A stretch of DNA of 64,000 bases from Gari tellinella (Eukaryota; Mollusca; Bivalvia; Cardiida; Psammobiidae): contig OV277856.1 in assembly GCA_922989275.2 (NCBI GenBank), positions 88,803,038-88,867,037 on the forward strand, in the 5' to 3' direction. Positions 7,451 through 38,590 of this stretch are shown here, piece by piece (position 1 is the stretch's first letter; every line of letters begins with the position of its first letter). The position numbers were made by a program, and so were the translations under genes. The notes under the pieces are model-generated. The model was not told where the DNA came from. It did no database searches and worked only from the letters and a program-made list of their open reading frames with translations.

Positions 7451-7683
7451 CCCATACCCCATAAATACGCCTTTGATTTATTCCTTCACTGGAGGAAATA
7501 TTTTAAATTTATACAATCATGTATATATATCTTAAGAAATATTTTATATATTCTAGCAGATGGTAGCTTAAAGCAGACTGAAAGTAAAGCAGACTGGGCC
7601 TTAATGTATATTCTGCTTTACTTTCAACCTGCTTTAAGTGGTCACCTGACTTCAATACTAGAAACAGGCTATGGGGTAAAGGG
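7451..7683. mobile_element. Palindromic TTAA MITE, complete copy
   Basis: TTAA at 7447-7450 and 7684-7687; ends CCCATACCCCATAAATACGCC and GGCTATGGGGTAAAGGG; central palindrome of the AAAGTAAAGCAGACTGGG type. Confidence 0.8.
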
Positions 7684-7829
7684 TTAAGAAATAAAGAAAT
7701 CCTTAATGAACATAAATTACAATTTATTTGGTATCACAAATAACAATTATTTCAACATGCTTTTAAATCTGGTACTGGTACTTAAGACAATTTTGCTTAC
7801 TAGAGTTTTTTGTACAAGACAGTGTTTAA

Positions 7830-10273: not shown

Positions 10274-10509
10274 CCCATTACTGCAAAAATATGCCTTTTT
10301 ACCCCTTTAGTTTATTCCTCCGCTGAAGAAAATAGTTCTCATTTATATAGTCATGAATATGTATCATAAGAAATAATTTCTTTATTCTAGAGGATGGTAG
10401 TTTAAAGCAGGTTGAAAGTAAAGCAGAATGTGCCTTATGGCACATTCTGCTTTACTTTCAACCTGCTTTAAGTGGTCACCTGTCTTCAAGGCTAGAAACA
10501 AGCTATGGG
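10274..10509. mobile_element. Palindromic TTAA MITE, complete copy
   Basis: TTAA at 10270-10273 and 10510-10513; the inner perfect palindrome AAAGTAAAGCAGAATGTGCC is at about 10409-10472. Confidence 0.75.
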
Positions 10510-10513
10510 TTAA

Positions 10514-22844: not shown

Positions 22845-23467
22845 TAAACCAAAAGTACAAGTGACCAAACGATTGTGAATGTGATCCAAATAGATATGTA
22901 AATTACGAAACTAACTCCTATCAAGATATAACATCCCTACAAGATTATCGCCAATAATATGGCGACACTTCTTACCCGTCGTGTAAAAGCCTTTATAGGA
23001 CTCTACGACGATTTACAGTCAAAACGCCCCCATTTTGGTCAAAACGCCCCCATATGCTGGTCAAAACGCCCCCATATTTTTTTTCAGAACGCCCCCAAAC
23101 CAAAACGAGTTGAATCTACTACATATAGGCATTCATATGTGTTCTATGGTAATGTAATCAAAGTTTATGACCATATTTAAGTATTTTTATCATTTATTAC
23201 TCCAAAAGATCAAACATATGTATAATTATACCTATCATAACCCTGTGTAACACATCTGGACATCAACCCCTATAAAAAGATGTTGCGTGGCCCTGAACCC
23301 AAAATTATTTCCAAATTATAGTATGATGTATATTTTATCATTTTTTCCCCAAATAAGTTGTAATAATAGATGTAGACATTTATCCAAGTAACAAAACTTG
23401 TTAAAAACAAAATTTCCTCTCTAGCCAACTTACAGGAGACATCTCACCTAGATTTCACACCTTTGGT

Positions 23468-23698
23468 AATCACATAATGAGTTTACACACATGCCGCTTA
23501 AATAGCATCTGCTTAAGAACATAACATAATTTTATTCAGATTCGGAATCACATAAAGAGTTTGCACACGTGCCGCTAATAGCACCTGCTTAAGAACAGAA
23601 CATAATTTTATTCAGATTCGGAATCATATAAAGAGTTTGCACACGTGCCGCTAATAGCACCTGCTTAAGAACAGAACATAATTTTATTCTGATTCGTA
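23468..23698. repeat. Three tandem copies of a 77-bp unit
   Basis: Units start AATCACATAA at 23468, 23546 and 23622. The last two are almost identical (AGTTTGCACACGTGCCGC). Confidence 0.85.
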
Positions 23699-24080
23699 CA
23701 AAGTGGATCTACAGTTACTACACCAGCTTAGGCACATATAAATAGTCATATAAAGTAGATTAAAAGATCCGCCACATCATCTTATATATTATAAGCTTGG
23801 CGTGTTGAGCGGTCACCCAATGGATAATTAGAGCCACATAATCATTTTCTTTAATAAAAGAAAGAGATTCTTTATTCAAATTTAATATTTACAGCATTAG
23901 TTTATTTACTTAACCTCTTCACTGCCTTTTCCCGAGTGCCATTTTTAATTGTAAACAGCTTGGATCCTGGTCAGACGCCGCACAACACGGCATCTGATCA
24001 GGATCCAAACTGTTTGACACTTTATTCAAGTCAAACACCTGCAATTGAGAAATAAAAGCAGACACCAATTGTTACAAATG

Positions 24081-27000
24081 GCATGGAGGAATTATACCCT
24101 GGAGAAGTATCCGGCCGGCTCGCGATTTATCGTGTCGTCCAAAATCGGTCAATCAGCGGCGCTCGCTGGCGGCTAGAAAACAATGTTTTTCCGAAAGTTA
24201 GGTGTTAATAGAAATGCTTTTAATGTCATCTTTTCGTTATAAATTTTAATACAGATGTTTTATTAGACAATAATCTTACGCGTAGTACAAAATTTGAGGC
24301 GATAGCTTATAAATTGTTAGTTAAGTGAGGTTTTGAAAATGAGAGAAAAACGTATTTTTTCGTTTACCTACGAAGTTTGGTGTTTAATAGAAATGCTTTT
24401 AATGTCATCTTTTCATTATAAATTTTAATACAGATGTTTTATTAGACAATGATCTTACGCGTAGTACAAAATTTGAGGCGATAGCTTATAAATTGTTAGT
24501 AAAGTGAGGTTTTGAAAATGAGAGAAAAACGTATTTTTTCGTTTACCTACAAAGTTTGGTGTTAATAGAAATGCTTTTAATGTCATCTTTTCGTTATAAA
24601 TTTTAATACAGATGTTTTATTAGACCATGATCTTACGCGTAGTACAAAATTTAAGGCGATAGCTTATAAATTGTTAGTATAGTGAGGTTTTGAAAATGAA
24701 AGAAAAACGTATTTTTTTCGTTTACCTACGAAGCTTGTGTGTGTCTATATTTCTCTGCCACTGTCTGTTTGCCTCTTGTCTGTCTCTCTGTCTGTCTGTT
24801 TTTCTCTTATCTCTGTCTGTCAGTCTCTCGCTTCTTCTTTTCTGTCTCCATATTTCTGTATGAATGTCTGTCTGTTTGTCTCTCTCTCTGATGATCCTCA
24901 TGCGGAGAAAAGGTAAAATGTGTCATAAAGAGCTTAATTTGACAAGAGACCCAGAGGGTCACATTTCGCTCACCTGAGGACATTGTACCATAGAATCTGA
25001 CTGGGCAAGACAACATTTTGATATAGCTATGACCCAGGTGCCATAATTTGATCTTGGTAGAGGACCACAATGCAAAGTTACATGTCACAGATATTAATGA
25101 TCTGGACCTTACGGTTTAAGAGAAGAAGATTTTTTAAGGTTTTCCTATAAAAACTGATAAGCCCCTGGGTGGGACCAATTTTGACCCAGGTGTCATAATT
25201 TGAACACACTTGGTAGGGAACCACAAGGCAAAGCTATATGTCAAATATTAAAGATCTGGGCCTTACAGTTTCAGAGTAGAAGATTCTCAAAGGTTTTCCT
25301 ATATTGTCTATGTAAAACTGATAAGCCCCGGGGCGGGGCCAAATTTGATCAAGGGGTCATAATTTGAACAATCTTGGTAGAGTACCATAGGGCAAAGCTA
25401 CATGTCAAATATAAATGATCTTGGCCTTACAGTTTCAGAGAAGAAGATTTTTAAAGGTTTTCCTATTAAAAACTAATACGCCCGAGGGCATGGCAATTTT
25501 TGGCCTTGGGTCATAATTTGAACAGTCTTGGTAGAGGACCACAAGGCAAAGCTATATGTCAAATATTAAAGATCTAGGCCATACAGTTTAAGAGAAGACA
25601 ATTTTTAAAGGGTTTCCCATATAAGTCTATGTAAAACTGATAAGCCCCGGGGCGGGGCCAATTTTGACCCAGGGGTTATAATTTGAACAGTTTTGGTAGA
25701 GGTCTATAAGGCAAAGCTACATGTTAAATATAAATGATCTAGGCCTTACAGTTTCAGAGAAGAAGATTTTTAAAGGTTTTCCTATGAAAAACTGATAAGC
25801 CCGAGGGCGGGGCCATTTTTGGCCCGGGGGTCATTATTTGAACAATCTTCGTAGAGGACCACAAGGCAAAGCTATATGGCGAATATTAAAGATCTGGGCC
25901 TTACAGTTTCAGAGAAGAAGATTTTTAAAGGTTTTCCTATATAAGTCTATGTAAAACTGATAAGCCCCGGGGCGGGGCCAATTTTGACCCGGGGTCATAA
26001 TTTGAACATTCTTGGACGAGGACCATATGGCAAAGCTACATGTCAAATATTAATGATCTAGGCCATACAGTTTCTGAGGAGAAGATTTTTAAAGGTTTTC
26101 CTAAGAAAAACTGATAAGCCCCAGGGCGGGGCCATTTTTGACCCCAGGGTCAAACTTTGAACAATCTTGGTAGAAGATCATTAGGTTATGATACATACCA
26201 AATATCAAAGGTCTGGGCCTTTAGGTTTCTGAGAAGAAGATTTTTTAAGATTTTCTTATGCATTAAAAGTTGTCTATACGGTCATGTTAGAAAATCTAGT
26301 CCCACAGCAAGGGGAATAGTTCTAGCCAAAAACTTTGACCAAGATTTCGTTCCCCCTTGTCACTGATGCTTCTGATAAAGTTTGGTTGAAATCGGGTTAG
26401 TGGTTTCAGAGGAGATGTTGTTTGAAAATGTGGACGGACGACGTACGACGTACTACGGACGCCGGACGGAATGGGATCACAATAGTCATCCTGAGCCTAT
26501 GGCTCAGGTGAGCTAAAAAAGGGGTAAACTATATTTCAAGAGACATACTCTATGAATCCGACATTTTTGCAGCCTGGTCTGGATTACAACTGTTTGGCAA
26601 TTGCAATAGTCATCATGTTACTGGTATTCAGTAATGAGAGGGTTAATCCAGTCATCAACCAAACCAGGTGCATTGATGTTGGGTTTTTTTTCTTGGTTTT
26701 TTTTCAATTCAATTCTATTATCTTTATTTTTTGTGATTTGTATAATATATAAAAATCATGCGGTTACAGAAGTCAAAAACACATGTTCAAGTTACACGCA
26801 CGGGTAGCATTGATCTTTTTTATTAAAGAGGAAACCCCCTGGTGTCCAATTCCCTAACATGCACTTCATAGATAATCGGCATGTTCAAGAAGCATGGACT
26901 TCATGCTGGGAGAGTTTTATGACGCTTATAAATGGCCTGCTAATTGTGTAGGGTTACGTAATGTGTCACATTCCTTTGTGATGTGTAATATGGTAGACAT

Positions 27001-27836
27001 GTAGTTTACAGATGAATAGCCCTAGTTCATTATTTAACCACAATTTCTTGATGATTTTATTCTTAAATAAACGTCTATTACCTTTGTAGGTCATCATTAC
27101 TTTTTTCGCTTCAAGAAAACCCCTGGTATTTTTACAACCGAAAGATAAGTGTCACGGCTTTATATCAAGACCTTTTTTTAATATATATATATATATATAT
27201 ATATTGGACGAAAATTATGGATTAAATTCAAGTTTTTGAAATGGGACGTTGTATTTATTTCGCGATCGCCTGCTCTCGTTTATCGACTATTTCATTTGGC
27301 AATCGCTCTTTAACTCGCCATAAAATTTGTTGATTTCAAGAAAAAAACACTGGCATTTTCTACAACTGAAAGAAAAATATCTTAGCTGTCCTTAAAGACC
27401 ATTGTTATGGAAATTGGCCTAAAATTGAGGATTTTATGAAAGGTTTTGTAACAGGGCGTGATATATTTTTGAGCGAGCGCTTGCTCCCTTTTATCGGCAA
27501 ATTTATTTGGTAACCGCTCTTTAACTCGCCATAAAAATGATCAATGTAAAAATTAGATTATGTTATTTTCACAAGTGAAAGATAAATATCTTAGCCTTTT
27601 TTTAAGATCATTATAATGAAAATCGGGTAAAAATTAAGGATTTTATGTAACTTAAACTAACAGTAGGTAACCATTCAACACGATAAAAAACGCGATAGCC
27701 CGCTATCGGCGTACCGGTGCAGTTGAATTATCGATCGATTAAGCGTTATCGCGCATACAGGTATTGGACGACAACATTTTCGGGAAAATGCAGATTTGTG
27801 TATATGATTCTTCTCCAGGGTATAATTCCTCCATGC
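24081..27836. mobile_element. Inner TIR element of about 3.75 kb
   Basis: The ends GCATGGAGGAATTATACCCT (24081) and its complement (to 27836) match for about 26 bp. Inside are three ~182-bp tandem units (24195-24727, with CTTACGCGTAGTACAAAATT), a TCTG/CT-rich microsatellite (24738-24900), HINE K, an AT-rich stretch with (TA)n at 27178-27203, and three ~190-bp units with CTCTTTAACTCGCCATAAAA (about 27030-27650). No transposase recognised. Confidence 0.6.
24940..26518 (+). mobile_element. HINE-like element K
   Basis: It starts GACAAGAGACCCAGAGGGTC with TTCGCTCACCTGAGG and ends CCTGAGCCTATGGCTCAGGT then GAGCTAAAAAA. The core has about nine units of ~160 bp with AAGCCCCGGGGCGGGGCCAA, GGTCATAATTTGAAC and TACAGTTTCAGAGAAGAAGA. 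The units alternate, giving a 316-323 bp dimer period. Confidence 0.8.
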
Positions 27837-28866
27837 AAATGGACGACACCTGACCTGAAATCAATGATTGTTTTTAAAGGAATAAACACTCATGTACTGG
27901 TCTCACACTTCACACCTTTGGTAATCACTTCAGCAAACACGTGGCGATAATTAACAATACACAGTAGAAAAAGTATACGGTTGTTAAAAAATGAAGTTAT
28001 GAAATATGGAGATGGAATTAAACTTTAAAGCCTTTATACTGTTTCTATTTTTAAAGATCAGGTGACAACTTTTATTGCAGTAAATACTCATGTATTTATT
28101 AACGGCTAACTATGTCCGGGAAATTGAAATCACCTTAAAAATATATGAAAATAGCAATTACCGATTAATAGTCGTATAAAAAGCAAATAAAAGTTCATAA
28201 TTATATATTTTATATAGCATAAACAATAATAATATATATATTTATATATAAATGGGGGCGTTTTGACTATGGGTTGGGGGCGTTTTTACCAATTTGTGGG
28301 GGCGTTTTGACTTGGGGCGTTTTGACCTGCAACCCTCTACGACGTATTGGTCGTATTCGAATCAGGGCAACTATCGCGTTAGTTGGAATATTTGTCAACA
28401 AGTTCTATTCGAATCACGACTTGATGTTTTCCGTTGACAAAATGTTGTCAAACACTGAAATCGAGCGTTGATTTAGTCACGTGACCACGTTTATACCACG
28501 TGATTAGTGTCTCTAGATAAAACAAACATAAAGACCCTCTCAATTAATCGATTGGATCCAGATCACATGGCATTATGTGCGTATATAAAAATTGGGAGCA
28601 TTACGACTGTTTTAACGGGTGTTTGATTCATTTCCATTCGTCCGGAAGTACAAAGTTTTCGTTGACTACAATTTCTATTCGAGTCGGGCCAAAATCGTTG
28701 ACATCAGTAAATCTTCGCGCGTTTGCTCCGCCCACTTTTCGTTGACCACAAACTCGATGATTCGAATACCACCATTGAGATATCTGAAATTTTTAGTCGC
28801 GAAAACTGATAACATACTGCAATTTCAGAGTTGCTTCATAATGATCAAACATTTAATGGGATTTAC

Positions 28867-32800: not shown

Positions 32801-33371
32801 CACAATCACGGGTAATTTCGGGTCGTGCGCGTCTGAGCCAGTTAGTAGAGTTAAGAACAGTGTCAATGATAAGGGTTAAAGATGAAACAAAGTTAAGAAT
32901 GTTAAAAAACAAGAGTAAAAACAGGATAAAAACATCATTACTGGACTTACGGCTTAAATGATTGTACATCTGTAAGGAGATAAAATAGTATTTATAATAC
33001 ATGTAGTCTGCCACAGTTTGAACCTGATTGAAACTCATAGAGTGACATAATCTAAATAAACGAATGTTTCTGTGTAAGTAAGCTGGGAATGGGCCAGCCA
33101 CTAACCCATAAACAATCTTATAAAAAAGATATAGTCTTGCATCTGAACGACGCTGCTCCAAGTACTTCCATCCTAGTTTCATTATCATATCGGAGACACT
33201 TGCATGCCTTGAATACTCACATAAGATCCAACGGATCTTTGTACGATTTCAATTTTGTCAATGTTGGATCCCACACCGTACAAGCATACTCCAGTTGAGG
33301 ACGAACAAGGGTTTGATAAGCACGCTCCCTGAGTGTGGATCTAATATTTATCTTTTAAGAAACCCTAGCCG
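32800..33371 (-). pseudogene. CR1/Jockey-like LINE, C-terminal part after insertion
   Basis: The minus strand reads LRERAYQTLVRPQLEYACTV (about 33330-33270), then after decay LGWKYLEQRRSDARLYLFYK and MSFNQVQTVADY. This is the C-terminal region following the reverse transcriptase in CR1/Jockey-like LINEs. The 5' continuation is at 38498-38590, on the other side of the 5.1-kb TIR element. Confidence 0.75.
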
Positions 33372-34473
33372 ATGTAACGAAGTATTTTGACCCCCATCGA
33401 AAAGTGACCCCCGGTCAAAATTCGACGTCGTAGAATGACCTCCCATCATCGACGACCCCCCCCCCCCCCCCCCCCCAATCGTCGAATTATGACCCCCTCT
33501 GTCGAAATATGACCCCTTTAAAATCCTTGATATTTTGTTTAAAGTCAGTTTTGCATATGCTAAAGTTGTTTTAAACCTAACTAAGTTTTGGGTGAATAAA
33601 TTATATTGATTGAATTATAAGTGTGTCCGCCTATCAACCTTATTGGTATCGAACCCAGAACCGTTTACCCTTTTACAAGTATACCTTTACGATCTACCAA
33701 TTACTCTTGTTCGATTGTTGATTTTATTTCGACGTAGCAGGCTGAGTAAACCCCAATCATACATGCACCACGTCTCCGAGAAAGCGTATGATCAGAATTT
33801 TAAATACGCTCGTATTGACATTCATTCCAAGAAATCTTCCTTTCTTGCCGCGGTTTCTTTGGTTTAACCAACTACCCCACAGCCTTTTTCTATCTTTAAA
33901 GACAGATGACCACTTAGAGCAGGTTAAAAGTAAAACAGATTGCGCATTCTGCTATACTTCAGCCTGCTTTAAGGTACACTTTGCTAGGATATAGAAAATA
34001 TTTTCTTATGGTATATATCCATGACTGTATAAATTTGATCTATTATCTCCAGTAGAGGAATAAAAAGATCAAAGGCGTAAAATTCGTATTTATTAGGTAA
34101 TGTCTGAACATATTTTCATAGAGGATGTTTTGATTTGTCGGAACTTATCCCTTTTGTCAAGAAATAAGAAGAATGCAGGTCGGTTGTTTTGAGTGGGTTT
34201 TGTTGTCTTTTGTCAACACTTGCAATGTTGTGCGTTTATACCATGTTCAGTGTAAAGTTAATTGCATTTACTAAACAAACAAGCAAACAAGCAAACAAAA
34301 AGCGATCAAAATCGGAAGCTGTGCTATGTTGCCTCATTGCACATCACACCATTCAGTGTCGTAGAAAGACTCCGGTCATTATTCTAGGTCGTATTTTGAC
34401 ACCCCGGCCATTATTCGATATTATAGTTTGACTCGCCGGTCATTATTCGATATATTATAATATATTATTATTC

Positions 34474-36007
34474 GGTAGATAAAACGAAAATAGTTATTTT
34501 CAGGAAAGGAGGAAGACTAAGTCAGGATCACACGTGGACATATGCTGGAAGACAAATTGATATCGTTAATAGCTTTAATTATTTGGGGTTAGTTTTAACA
34601 TGTGGGGGTTCATTCATGCAGGCAACTAATACATTATCTGGGAAGGGACTGAGAGCTATGCATGCCTTATTTGGCATAACAAGGGAAATTATAGTACCGG
34701 TTGATATTATGTGCAATTTGTTTGATGCCTATGTACTTTCAGTTTTGAATTATAGTTGTGAAGTCTGGGGATTTATGAAAGCTGATAACATTGAAAGGGT
34801 ACATCGAAAATTTTGCAAATGGTTATTGAATGTAAAAGTATCAACAAACTCTCTACCATTATATGCTGAGTTAGGTCGTTTCCCATTATATATTTGTAGA
34901 CATGTCAGAATAATAAAATTCTGGTTAAAGTTTTATACGTTTAAATATGATAATTGCATTCTTAAATACATTATTGACAGTCAGAGAAGAGAAATTGAGA
35001 CAGAAATGGGCATTATTAACTGGTCTTGCAAAGTAAAGGATTTGTTATGCAATTCGGGCATAATGGGTGTATTGTTTGTGTTGCGTTTCCTGCTTGAGTC
35101 TTCTTTCGTATTTATTCGCAGATGTCTGGACCTTTCCAGAATCTGTCAGTTTAAATAAATTCATACCTGTGTTGAAATCACGACTAAAGGACATTGACAT
35201 TACGAATTGGCATACCTCTGTAAATAACAGTACATCATTGTATATGTTTAAAGAACTGAAAATAAATTACCAGCGCTCTAGTTATCTAGGTGCACTTGAT
35301 AAAGCCAAATATAGAAATACAATAGCAAAAATTAGACTATCTTCACATAAGCTTTTAATTGAAACAGGTCGACATAGAAATATAGCAAGAAATTAAAGAA
35401 TATGTCCGGTATGTGTATTAAACGACATAGAAGACGAGTATCACTTTATCTTAATTTGTTCGAGATATGAAGATTTGAGAAAACAATATATTCCTAGATA
35501 CTACCGACAAAGACCGAACATGTTTAAATTCAATGAACTTCTTAACACTTCCAAAAAAGCCTTCTTAACCAAATTAGCAATATACTGTATTAAGAGTTTT
35601 AAATTAAGAGACAACTTATTAAACGCATAGGAGAAACTACTTATTTTTGAAGTAGAAAAGTACATGTTTAACTGCCATTATGTTGTTTGTTAAATATGGT
35701 GATAAACTATTTTTTGTTTTAAAATGCTCTTTTGTTTTTTCAAAATTGTTAGTAGTACTACTATTCACAATTTTGATAAAAAACAAAAGAGAATGTCCTA
35801 ATGACAAAAGAAATTACTCGAAACTTACCTATACTATTAAGTACTGAAATATTCCGAGATTAACACTCTCACAGTTTTTCACTGTTTTTCATGTGGTAAA
35901 CATGATATGTTGATTATTTTCAACGCATGCAATGTTTATGTGTATGTATGTATGGTGATGAACTGTTATGCTTAAACCAAAATAAAATATTCTGTTCTGT
36001 TCTGTTC
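34474..36007 (+). pseudogene. LINE 3' fragment with 8-bp target duplication
   Basis: A 5'-truncated LINE insertion flanked by TATTATTC (34466-34473 and 36008-36015). It begins inside the reverse transcriptase (DKTKIVIFRKGGRLSQ), continues FNYLGLVL and LFDAYVLSVLNYSCEVWGF, and ends with a zinc-knuckle-like tail ICPVCVLNDIEDEYHFILIC. One frame change lies near 35090 and one in-frame TAA at 35394-35396 (expected Glu codon); the last stop is TAG at 35628-35630. The 3' end is (TTCTG)n. Not active. Confidence 0.82.
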
Positions 36008-38220
36008 TATTATTCTCGATGTCGTAGAATGACTCCCCGGTCATTATTCGATGTCGTAGAGTGACCCACGGTCATTATTCGATGTCGTAGAATGACTCCC
36101 CCGTTCGTTTTTCAATGTCATAGAATAAAGCCATCGGTCATTATTCTATGTCGTAGAATGACTCCCCCGTAAATTATTCGATGCAGTAGAATGACGCCAA
36201 GGGTCATATTATGATGTCGTTTAATAATCTAATCTCTCCAGGGTTTATATGTTATATGTTAGAAGTACATGTACTCTTCTAGTACTTCTACCATTCTCCG
36301 ATCTCGTAGAATGATGCTCGGAAATAATTCGATGTCAAATGTATTAAACAAGTCATGATCTGTTCGACAAACGCGAGTTTACATTGCAAATGCTACTTCA
36401 GGTTACAGTGAAAACATTTATGCAATACTAGACCTTTCATGGCCAAATTAATAGTTGGCGTTGGTAAAACAAAAAAGTTTGAGTGTTATGCTAAAATGAA
36501 AGTGTGGATTAAGTGTTTAGATGCAGTAAGCATGTGTTACTCTCATTTGCTTATATTCTGTTTAGGTTCTAAATTGAGTCATGACGCTCGTTTTTCACAT
36601 GTCACACGCTTTTTGCTCGTAAGCTAAGTCGGGTCAGAAATTTTAGGTTTAGCGACAGATAACGTCATTGAAATGGTTGCTAGAAAACCAATCATATATT
36701 TACGATGAACTTTTGATAATTCGATATATTTTATAGACCTTTATGAGCTCGAGATATCAGTATTTGATGACTAGAAGGGCCCCATGTTATATCACAGAAT
36801 GCCACTTCATGTCACGATCAATGTTCGATGTCAATATTTGATGCCTCCCTGTCATTCATTATTCGACGTCGTAGAATAAACCCGCTATAGTCGGTGTCAG
36901 CTCCTTGAGGGTTAATTTATGTCACATTGTCGAAAATATGTGTTATCTAAATAAAAATCATTAGCTACTCGTATTGTCATTATTAGGTTATTTTGTTTTG
37001 TACAATGTACTATAAACAACCTAATAAATTTCCATAAAGGCAAATGTCACTATGTTTCTCCTGCGACACAATATAAGAGAACTAATGTCATTAAAATGGA
37101 TGTAAGTATTACATACCTTCTAAATCGGGGTATTGTTTCACTCGTTCAGCTCTATTCGTATCGAATTACCCTGATAGGCTGTAAACTACGTTCATACAAA
37201 AACTCATAATCTATAACGAAGAGATGCAATTTATATAAACTGCATTTTCAAATGGCGCGCTTAATGTAAATTTGAATTTTGACATGTTTATCATTTAAAT
37301 TTTAGGTATCTTTCAAGTCATTTGCCCATGGACTAGTTTCGATTATACATCAAGTCAATTTTCTACTAGTTAGGGTTATTTTATACGATATATTACAAAA
37401 CTGACATATACTGCAAACCCATATAAAAGGATTCTTTTAGGAACAGTCTGATCTGGGTCTACATTGTTTGCGAAGGCCTAGTGTACGATTCTCATGTACA
37501 TGGTTTGTGAATGACTAGTATACTCGTTGTTAGGGTCCAATGGGTTAAACTGCGCCTCTTAATTGGTAGGGAAGGGGGAGTCATTTTTCGATGGGGGTCA
37601 AAGTTTTTCAGGGGGGTCAAAATACTTCATGTGGGGGTCATAGTACTATATTTACATTCACCCTGTAAAGTCTTTATGTAATCCTATTAAAAATTTGCGG
37701 TACATCCGCCGATGAACCTACACTTCGGAACTGGTTTTAGCCAGTTCGGATTTCGCCCGTGCTATTCGTGGACTTCTTCAAATAGACTACATCGGGCACT
37801 TCACACTAAGCTCCCATTGGTCGACGGTCATATGACACTAGCGGAGTGATACAGACCCATAGGTCGTTGCCATCGCGTTGCTATGTGTATAAATGGGTTA
37901 AGAAAACAACCGCGACCTGTATTTTTAGAATGTGCTTTGGCAATAGATATTCAAGTTGCACTGTTATTTGTTTGCCTTGTAAGTCTTTTCCATTCACAGA
38001 GAGAAAGTTTACTGGAAAAAATGCTGAATTTTTAATACAGTTAGAGTACATGTAGTTGGGACTACTTTCTCACCATATTTAGAAACTGGAATGGCTATTA
38101 CATCGACATTACATCTATCAAACCTCTTTGACCGGTATATGATAAATTCTTATACAGAAAAACAAATCTGGCCAATAAACACATTAAATTGGCAAGACAG
38201 AAAATATAAATATAAATATA

Positions 38221-38355
38221 AGGAATAAACAACATCTCTTTGCCGCTCATGACGGTATGACTACATTAGCTTCGGTGGGTAAATTTAACGAAAACGCCCT
38301 GCGAAGCTAATGTAGTCATACCGTCATGAACTTCAAAAATATGTTGTTTATTCCT
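38221..38355. mobile_element. Foldback element
   Basis: The arms AGGAATAAACAACAT and CTCATGACGGTATGACTACA are repeated in reverse at the right end (about 38303-38356) around a short centre. Confidence 0.75.
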
Positions 38356-38497
38356 ATAATGACCGGGGGGTCAACTTTCGACGTCGTATTCTGACCGGGG
38401 GTCTTTGTTTGACATCGAAAAATGACCGGGGTCATTAAACGTCGTCGAATTTTGACCGGGGGTCATTTTTCGATGGGGGTCAGTATACTTCGTTACA

Positions 38498-38590
38498 CCG
38501 GCGATCTGTTGAGGTAGTAATGTGGTCAACACTTGCATTCCACAAGCTGTCCGAGATGTCGACACCTAGAACACTACTCATAAAGAACTG
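38498..38590 (-). pseudogene. CR1/Jockey-like LINE, part before insertion
   Basis: The minus strand reads VLGVDISDSLWNASVDHITT then STDR, the segment that normally precedes RLGFLKRN in this LINE group. The missing part lies at 33371 and below. Further upstream (above 38590) the similarity ends. Confidence 0.75.

What the first reader, a model, noticed from the sequence alone, without database searches (positions are those of the whole stretch)
33369..38500. 5.1-kb TIR element whose removal restores a LINE reading frame
LINE sequence on the minus strand ends ...ITTSTDR at 38501 and resumes at 33371. With the element and one CCG removed, the codons read on as R-L-G-F-L-K-R, as expected for this LINE family. 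This fixes the insertion to the base: a 3-bp CCG duplication and ends TGTAACGAAGTAT. The ends carry spaced GACCCC/GGTCATT..TCGACGTCGTAGAATGA arrays, an architecture like that of the 23011-28334 element with a different motif.
Basis: partly seen in the sequence, partly recalled or inferred. Interest (0 to 1): 0.75.

Follow-up and report, generated by a model that had tools for sequence, protein, structure and literature searches.

The report
Ginger1-type jumping DNA inside a LINE
A 5.1-kb stretch is an old copy of a common, protein-less jumping element that inserts at CCGG and landed inside the remains of another mobile element; the kind is known, though its evenly spaced binding-site-like arrays and its end-to-end copies are unusual.

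Summary
The element is real: 33373-38497 (5,125 bp), identical 13-bp ends TGTAACGAAGTAT, 68-bp inverted repeats 91% identical. It sits in a 5'-truncated, already broken LINE. Removing the element plus 4 bp gives a gapless join, supported by 102 of 108 LINE proteins and by empty genomic copies of that LINE. The duplication is 4 bp, not 3: CCGG, with the left copy now CCGA. In this 1.6-Gb genome exact CCGG+end occurs 1,427 times; 16 of 18 copies read at both ends have CCGG/CCGG. Typical copies are about 3.25 kb and, in 7 checked, without long frames. The window copy is longer through a nested LINE-like insert (1,534 bp) and a 709-bp insert, and looks like a mosaic of two subfamilies. TGTNR ends, 4-bp CCGG target, TIR and element length match the published Ginger1 description, so this is most likely a non-autonomous Ginger1-type family; no autonomous partner was identified. 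A palindromic motif repeats every 31.5 bp (three helical turns) at the ends and inside, perhaps as transposase sites. In a junction search, 32 of 40 scored places span two element ends lying next to each other. The 23011-28334 element has a 10-bp flanking repeat and looks like a different kind.

The parts
33369..33372 (+). left target-site duplication, CCGA (ancestral CCGG)
   Evidence: CCGG in 27 of 30 left flanks of fetched copies (window included)
33373..33440 (+). left terminal inverted repeat, starts TGTAACGAAGTAT
33388..33520 (+). left subterminal motif array (GACCCCC / GGTCAAAATTCGACGTCGTAGAATGAC) with a poly-C tract at 33456-33476
33373..34451 (+). left part of the element, 95.4% identical to genomic copy L031
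34351..34473 (+). internal motif array, first part
34474..36007 (+). nested 5'-truncated LINE-like insertion (1,534 bp), flanked by TATTATTC (34466-34473 / 36008-36015); breaks the internal array
   Evidence: not matched by any of the 20 family copies compared; LINE nature is inferred (no Pfam match)
36008..36316 (+). internal motif array, second part
36114..37649 (+). right part, 90.8% identical to subfamily copy L039; pieces of it are 65-77% to the common subfamily
37650..38358 (+). second nested insertion (709 bp), absent from L039 and not matched by the other copies compared; holds the 59-nt-arm hairpin 38221-38355
38359..38497 (-). right subterminal array and right terminal inverted repeat (38430-38497); 89-93% to most compared copies
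38498..38501 (+). right target-site duplication, CCGG
   Evidence: exact CCGG-end site at G000:C1:88841522
38498..38570 (-). host LINE relic, upstream piece (ends ...ITTSTDR)
   Evidence: DNA homology to this extent
33066..33372 (-). host LINE relic, downstream piece (starts RLGFLKR, frameshifted further on); outer limit from the protein query

Best explanation
It is a non-autonomous DNA transposon of the Ginger1 type. A Gypsy-integrase-like Ginger1 transposase made elsewhere in the genome binds the ends, with the 31-bp palindromic arrays as likely binding sites. It joins the TGT...ACA ends to a CCGG target with a 4-bp stagger, and repair leaves a CCGG duplication. This copy landed in a LINE relic and was later hit by a LINE-like insert and by a 709-bp element. 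Shown: the ends, the inverted repeats, the 4-bp CCGG duplication in many copies, empty sites, a large family, and no long frame in the copies checked. Inferred: the class of the transposase, the binding-site role of the arrays, and cut-and-paste rather than copy-out movement.
For: Published Ginger1 features: 5' TGTNR, 4-bp TSD CCGG (75%) or CCGT/ACGG (24%), TIR about 40-270 bp, full length about 2.6-7 kb (PMC2836005, section 5 and passages). Here: ends TGTAA/TTACA, TIR 68 bp. Left flanks are CCGG in 27 of 30 fetched copies, and 16 of 18 copies read at both ends have CCGG/CCGG. 1,427 exact CCGGTGTAACGAAGTAT sites in the genome against 0 for the reversed control. On contig C1, 91 of 98 ends found with VNNN+20-mer are preceded by CCGG (flanks with T at -4 are left out by the pattern). 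On C1, 39 facing pairs less than 12 kb apart (78 of 96 sites) have median length 3,246 bp. LINE insertions that join cleanly: the window copy, L009/L038 (351-aa frame) and L018/L047 (513-aa frame). Longest stop-to-stop frame in 7 typical copies 101 aa. Array spacing averages 31.47 bp over 132 spacings.
Against: No autonomous copy or transposase with these ends was found. The H2C2 search scored 150 of 1,700 candidates, 92 of the 150 in frames of 1,000 aa or more, taken to be Gypsy; 35 lie in frames of 500-999 aa and were not read, so a partner may be among them. The Ulp1 search did not complete. Two of 18 copies (L039, L041) lack a matching CCGG pair, and 2 of 20 fetched copies (L032, L046) showed no right end in about 9.8 kb. 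L039, the nearest relative of the window copy's right part, is one of the two misfits. The paper passages that I read do not describe 31-bp arrays for Ginger1.
Confidence: 0.88

Rival explanations
1. A transposon with a 3-bp duplication (CCG) and end ATGTAACG; it would point to a superfamily with 3-bp duplications such as CACTA (recalled) or Zator (3 bp).
For: The window copy alone shows only CCG shared between its two flanks, and the empty site is the same under both readings.
Against: 16 of 18 copies have an identical 4-bp CCGG on both sides; the left CCGA differs by one base; the extra A is not mirrored at the right end.
Confidence: 0.03
2. A non-autonomous element moved by another integrase-like transposase (an IS481EU- or IS3EU/GingerRoot-like or unclassified 4-bp-TSD lineage) that happens to prefer CCGG.
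For: IS481EU also has TGT...ACA ends in part of its families and often 4-bp duplications (PMC10045372 passages); no transposase has been linked to this family.
Against: CCGG/CCGT specificity is reported for Ginger1. In the passages read, IS481EU is described from parabasalids, with longer duplications common.
Confidence: 0.08
3. An inverted pair of solo LTRs or another recombination product rather than a transposon.
For: TGTNR termini are also those of Gypsy LTRs.
Against: Inward-facing ends about 3.2 kb apart recur along C1 (39 pairs), with CCGG duplications and empty sites.
Confidence: 0.01

Closest known systems
Ginger1 DNA transposons (PMC2836005; section 5 and passages read)
   Same: TGTNR ends, 4-bp CCGG duplication, TIR length, element length
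   Different: No long frame in the copies checked here; 31-bp palindromic arrays at the ends and inside, not mentioned in the parts read
Ginger2/TDD
   Same: TGTNR ends, 4- or 5-bp duplications
   Different: Ginger2 prefers AT-rich RTATAY targets; here the target is CCGG
IS481EU (PMC10045372; passages read)
   Same: TGT...ACA ends in part of the families, 4-bp duplications in part of the copies
   Different: Described there from parabasalids, with about 15- and 25-bp duplications also common; not seen here
Bacterial IS30/IS3-type elements (recalled, no call)
   Same: Element ends next to other ends with a target-length spacer
   Different: Prokaryotic; a mechanism shared with this family was not tested

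Membership tests
Ginger1 | 5' end TGTNR | tested here: met
   TGTAA at both ends; 13 bp identical
Ginger1 | 4-bp duplication, CCGG or CCGT/ACGG | tested here: met
   16 of 18 copies CCGG/CCGG; 91 of 98 ends on C1 with non-T at -4 preceded by CCGG; window copy CCGA/CCGG
Ginger1 | TIR about 40-270 bp, full length about 2.6-7 kb | tested here: met
   68-bp TIR; median 3,246 bp on C1; window copy 5,125 bp with two nested inserts
Ginger1 | Gypsy-integrase-like transposase (YPYY, H2C2, DDE, GPY/F), usually with OTU or Ulp1 | tested here: inconclusive
   No frame over 101 aa in 7 typical copies.
Ginger2 | AT-rich RTATAY target | tested here: not met
   CCGG target
3-bp-TSD superfamilies (CACTA recalled; Zator) | 3-bp duplication | tested here: not met
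   4 bp in 16 of 18 copies
IS481EU | duplications of discrete lengths (about 4, 15 or 25 bp) | tested here: inconclusive
   Only 4-bp duplications seen in the 16 matching copies, which some IS481EU families also show; longer ones were not sought in L039 and L041

The most novel reading that the evidence does not exclude
This Ginger1-type family carries transposase sites as palindromes spaced three helical turns apart, at both ends and in an internal array, and its transpososome favours CCGG sites that already flank a family member. That would build strings of elements (head-to-tail, head-to-head, tail-to-tail) separated by one 4-bp spacer. The internal array would also serve as a recombination point that makes mosaic copies such as this one.
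Probability: 0.3. Interest if true: 0.5.

Novelty: new member of a known kind. Interest (0 to 1): 0.35.

Why it matters
It corrects a 3-bp to a 4-bp CCGG duplication and so turns an unclassified element into a likely Ginger1-type family with 1,427 exact CCGG-end sites in one genome; the 2010 table gives only lower bounds per family, the highest being more than 100. If the end-to-end joining is real self-targeting, it gives a natural system to study how integrase-type transposases choose targets. The helically phased arrays are a concrete, testable model for end recognition.

Tried and rejected
Rejected: a 3-bp duplication; relation to the 23011-28334 element (10-bp repeat CTCTACGACG, spacing 20-22 bp); an internal extra end at about 37657, which I first suspected and which lies at the edge of a nested insert; L034 (8,934 bp) as an autonomous copy, since it is a family copy with a nested element of about 5.6 kb; the two ends on C16 8.9 kb apart as one element; the OTU locus on C8 as a likely partner (read in part only). 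Led nowhere: Pfam on three window ORFs, Rfam, a viral-contig scan for the end (0 hits). The literature searches (listings) brought up, beyond PMC2836005, no paper whose title or abstract start told of such arrays; this does not show that none exists. The excess of end-to-end joins is a rough estimate: the exact genome-wide count (pattern with a 4-bp gap) did not complete.
Full report
1. What is there. The window holds two perfect copies of TGTAACGAAGTAT, facing inward, at 33373-33385 and 38485-38497; with up to 3 mismatches the 13-mer is not enriched in the window (35 found, 26.8 expected). They start an inverted repeat of 68 bp and 91% identity. Outside the ends the + strand reads CCGA (33369-33372) and CCGG (38498-38501). 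The element proper is thus 33373-38497, 5,125 bp. The array motif TTCGAYGTCGTAGAATGAC with up to 3 mismatches is found 11 times in the window, each time inside the element, with 0.01 expected.

2. The LINE join. On the minus strand the flanks belong to one LINE relic. A protein read across the join (frameshifts bridged) found 235 relatives, of which 120 were listed. In an alignment of those 120, 108 had enough residues over the junction to count; 102 of the 108 have the same number of residues as the joined reading, 3 have one fewer, 2 have one or two more, 1 is far shorter. The joined residue is R where relatives have T (73) or S (26 of 120), so it is not the family norm. A 180-nt DNA query of the joined flanks gave 40 scored matches (102 candidates). 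Two are the halves of the window locus (75-180 and 1-77). The other 38 all span the junction, at 73-79% identity; some rows look like duplicates of each other. Two of them, fetched and aligned, show no gap at the junction; they read CGCACG and CGTACC where the joined window reads CGCCGG, so the LINE copy had changed there before the insertion. The LINE was dead anyway: truncated at its 5' side, a stop directly after LGFLKR, and a change of frame afterwards; beside the junction the window copy lacks 3 nt upstream and 7 nt downstream.

3. Three or four base pairs. The window alone cannot decide. The genome can. A left-end search scored 41 matches among 1,112 candidates and gave thirty loci, the window among them: 27 of 30 have CCGG before the end; the others are the window (CCGA), TCCG and GCCG. 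Twenty of these copies were fetched over 10 kb. A right end was found in 18 (not in L032, L046); internal look-alikes ending CTTCCTTACC and further ends downstream were set aside by hand. Of the 18, 16 have CCGG on both sides; L039 and L041 do not. Around CCGG the preferred target reads TG-CCGG-CA (T 18, G 20 of 29 on the left; C 11, A 11 of 18 on the right). Genome-wide, CCGGTGTAACGAAGTAT occurs 1,427 times exactly, with 0 for the reversed control. On contig C1, 91 of 98 ends with non-T at position -4 are preceded by CCGG. On C1, 78 of 96 sites form 39 facing pairs under 12 kb with median element length 3,246 bp; 18 sites stay unpaired.

4. More empty-site tests. Joining the flanks of 17 copies (the 18th was lost to a script error) gave two frames that read as LINE: L009/L038 (351 aa...FFPRTV|PAWNSLP...) and L018/L047 (513 aa...NKAAGPDMMP|ARVLKEL...). 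A third frame of 146 aa (L006/L035) was not interpreted; the other 14 gave at most 88 aa. The spacing FFPRT-3-WN agrees with 4 of 4 LINE relatives that hold this motif, out of 120 searched. That the second stretch is a usual RT motif is recalled, not tested.

5. The family. Of the 18 copies, 14 are 3.2-3.5 kb long; the others are 2,714, 3,005, 3,763 and 8,934 bp. In a comparison of 21 elements, 17 have a median identity of 90-95% to the rest; the window copy (86.9), L039 (82.6) and two tandem partners, L040b (81.9) and L048b (83.1), lie lower, and the last two are 95% alike. No stop-to-stop frame exceeds 101 aa in the 7 copies checked. The window copy looks like a mosaic: its left 1.08 kb is 95.4% identical to L031 but 84% to L039; its right part is 90.8% identical to L039 (36114-37649), while pieces of it are 65-77% to the common subfamily; the terminal 139 bp are close to all (89-93%) and say nothing. 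The change of affinity falls in the internal array. Only one copy of the second subfamily (L039) was seen, so the mosaic rests on one comparison. The window copy carries a nested LINE-like insert (34474-36007, flanked by TATTATTC) and a 709-bp insert (37650-38358) with the hairpin 38221-38355. L034 has a different nested element of about 5.6 kb.

6. The arrays. In 21 elements, 132 neighbouring units less than 45 bp apart are spaced 31.47 bp on average, 116 of the 132 at 31 or 32. That is three turns of B-DNA (10.5 bp per turn, recalled). A unit is an imperfect palindrome (22 of 28 positions; 4 of 20,000 letter shuffles do as well). Repeated, phased, symmetric sites at both ends suggest protein binding, most simply by the transposase; this is inference.

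7. End-to-end copies. L040 and L048 show two elements sharing one CCGG, head-to-tail. An 84-nt junction query gave 40 places out of 883 candidates, of which 32 match at least 72 bp across both ends, one 67 bp and seven only about 50 bp, that is one end (counted by eye from the table). Eight were read at 160 bp: one is head-to-head (L053), one tail-to-tail (L058), one head-to-tail (L054); L055 and L060 are unclear on one side; the three on C7 (L056, L057, L059) were not parsed by the script and show CCCC in place of CCGG as printed, and may be local duplicates. The other 24 of the 32 were not read in that call. CCGG occurs 1.16 times per kb in the window, about 1.85 million sites if that holds for the genome; in the fetched 10-kb loci it is 2.54 per kb. 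With an assumed 750-1,500 elements, random choice among CCGG sites would give roughly 0.3-1.2 such joins at the first rate and fewer at the second (N squared over S). The observed number is higher, but clustering of insertions, copies with decayed ends and later duplication are not accounted for, and the extra elements in L036, L047 and L018 warn that insertions cluster or that copies are more numerous than assumed. Self-targeting is a possibility, not a result.

8. What it is. Ginger1 elements have TGTNR ends, 4-bp CCGG (75%) or CCGT/ACGG (24%) duplications, TIRs of about 40-270 bp and lengths of 2.6-7 kb (PMC2836005; section 5 and passages read). The features of ends, target and length that can be tested on a non-autonomous copy are met. 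The defining transposase was not found: the H2C2 profile scored 150 of 1,700 candidates, 92 of the 150 in frames of at least 1,000 aa, taken to be Gypsy, and 35 in frames of 500-999 aa that were not read; OTU matched 42 places, at one of which the only frame of 150 aa or more in the 1.3 kb read has finger-like motifs before OTU (judged by eye); the Ulp1 search did not complete. I therefore call it a Ginger1-type non-autonomous family, with formal membership open until a partner is seen. A bivalve survey lists 98 Ginger elements (PMC10294476, passages) and an oyster satellite study labels one satellite Ginger1-like (PMC8268682, passages); neither describes this family in the passages read.

9. 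The neighbouring element 23011-28334. It is flanked by CTCTACGACG on both sides (23001-23010 / 28335-28344), its outermost bases match poorly, and the core TCAAAACG on its left side is spaced 20 and 22 bp. A 10-bp duplication does not fit Ginger1, so on present evidence the likeness is one of style; other copies of that element were not sought.

Noticed in passing
23001-28344: Second element with 10-bp flanking repeat CTCTACGACG and TCAAAACGCCCCC arrays spaced 20-22 bp on the left side; by eye it also holds repeated inner blocks. Not Ginger1-like.
   Followed up: partly
33854-34111: Part of the element interior matches more than ten other places in the window at about 68-89% (for example 7466-7699, 10311-10512); an older repeat seems to be built into the family.
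   Followed up: no
38221-38355: 59-nt-arm hairpin, probably a small inverted-repeat element, within the 709-bp insert.
   Followed up: no
L036 and L047 (10-kb loci): Second family copies in inverted orientation lie a few kb from the first, suggesting clustered insertions.
   Followed up: partly
L034:541-6129: A nested element of about 5.6 kb with inverted repeats of about 690 bp and a 154-aa frame inside a family copy.
   Followed up: no
L056, L057, L059 (contig C7, 84.44-84.52 Mb): Three similar end-to-end junctions with CCCC rather than CCGG between the ends, as printed, within 83 kb; probably local duplication.
   Followed up: partly
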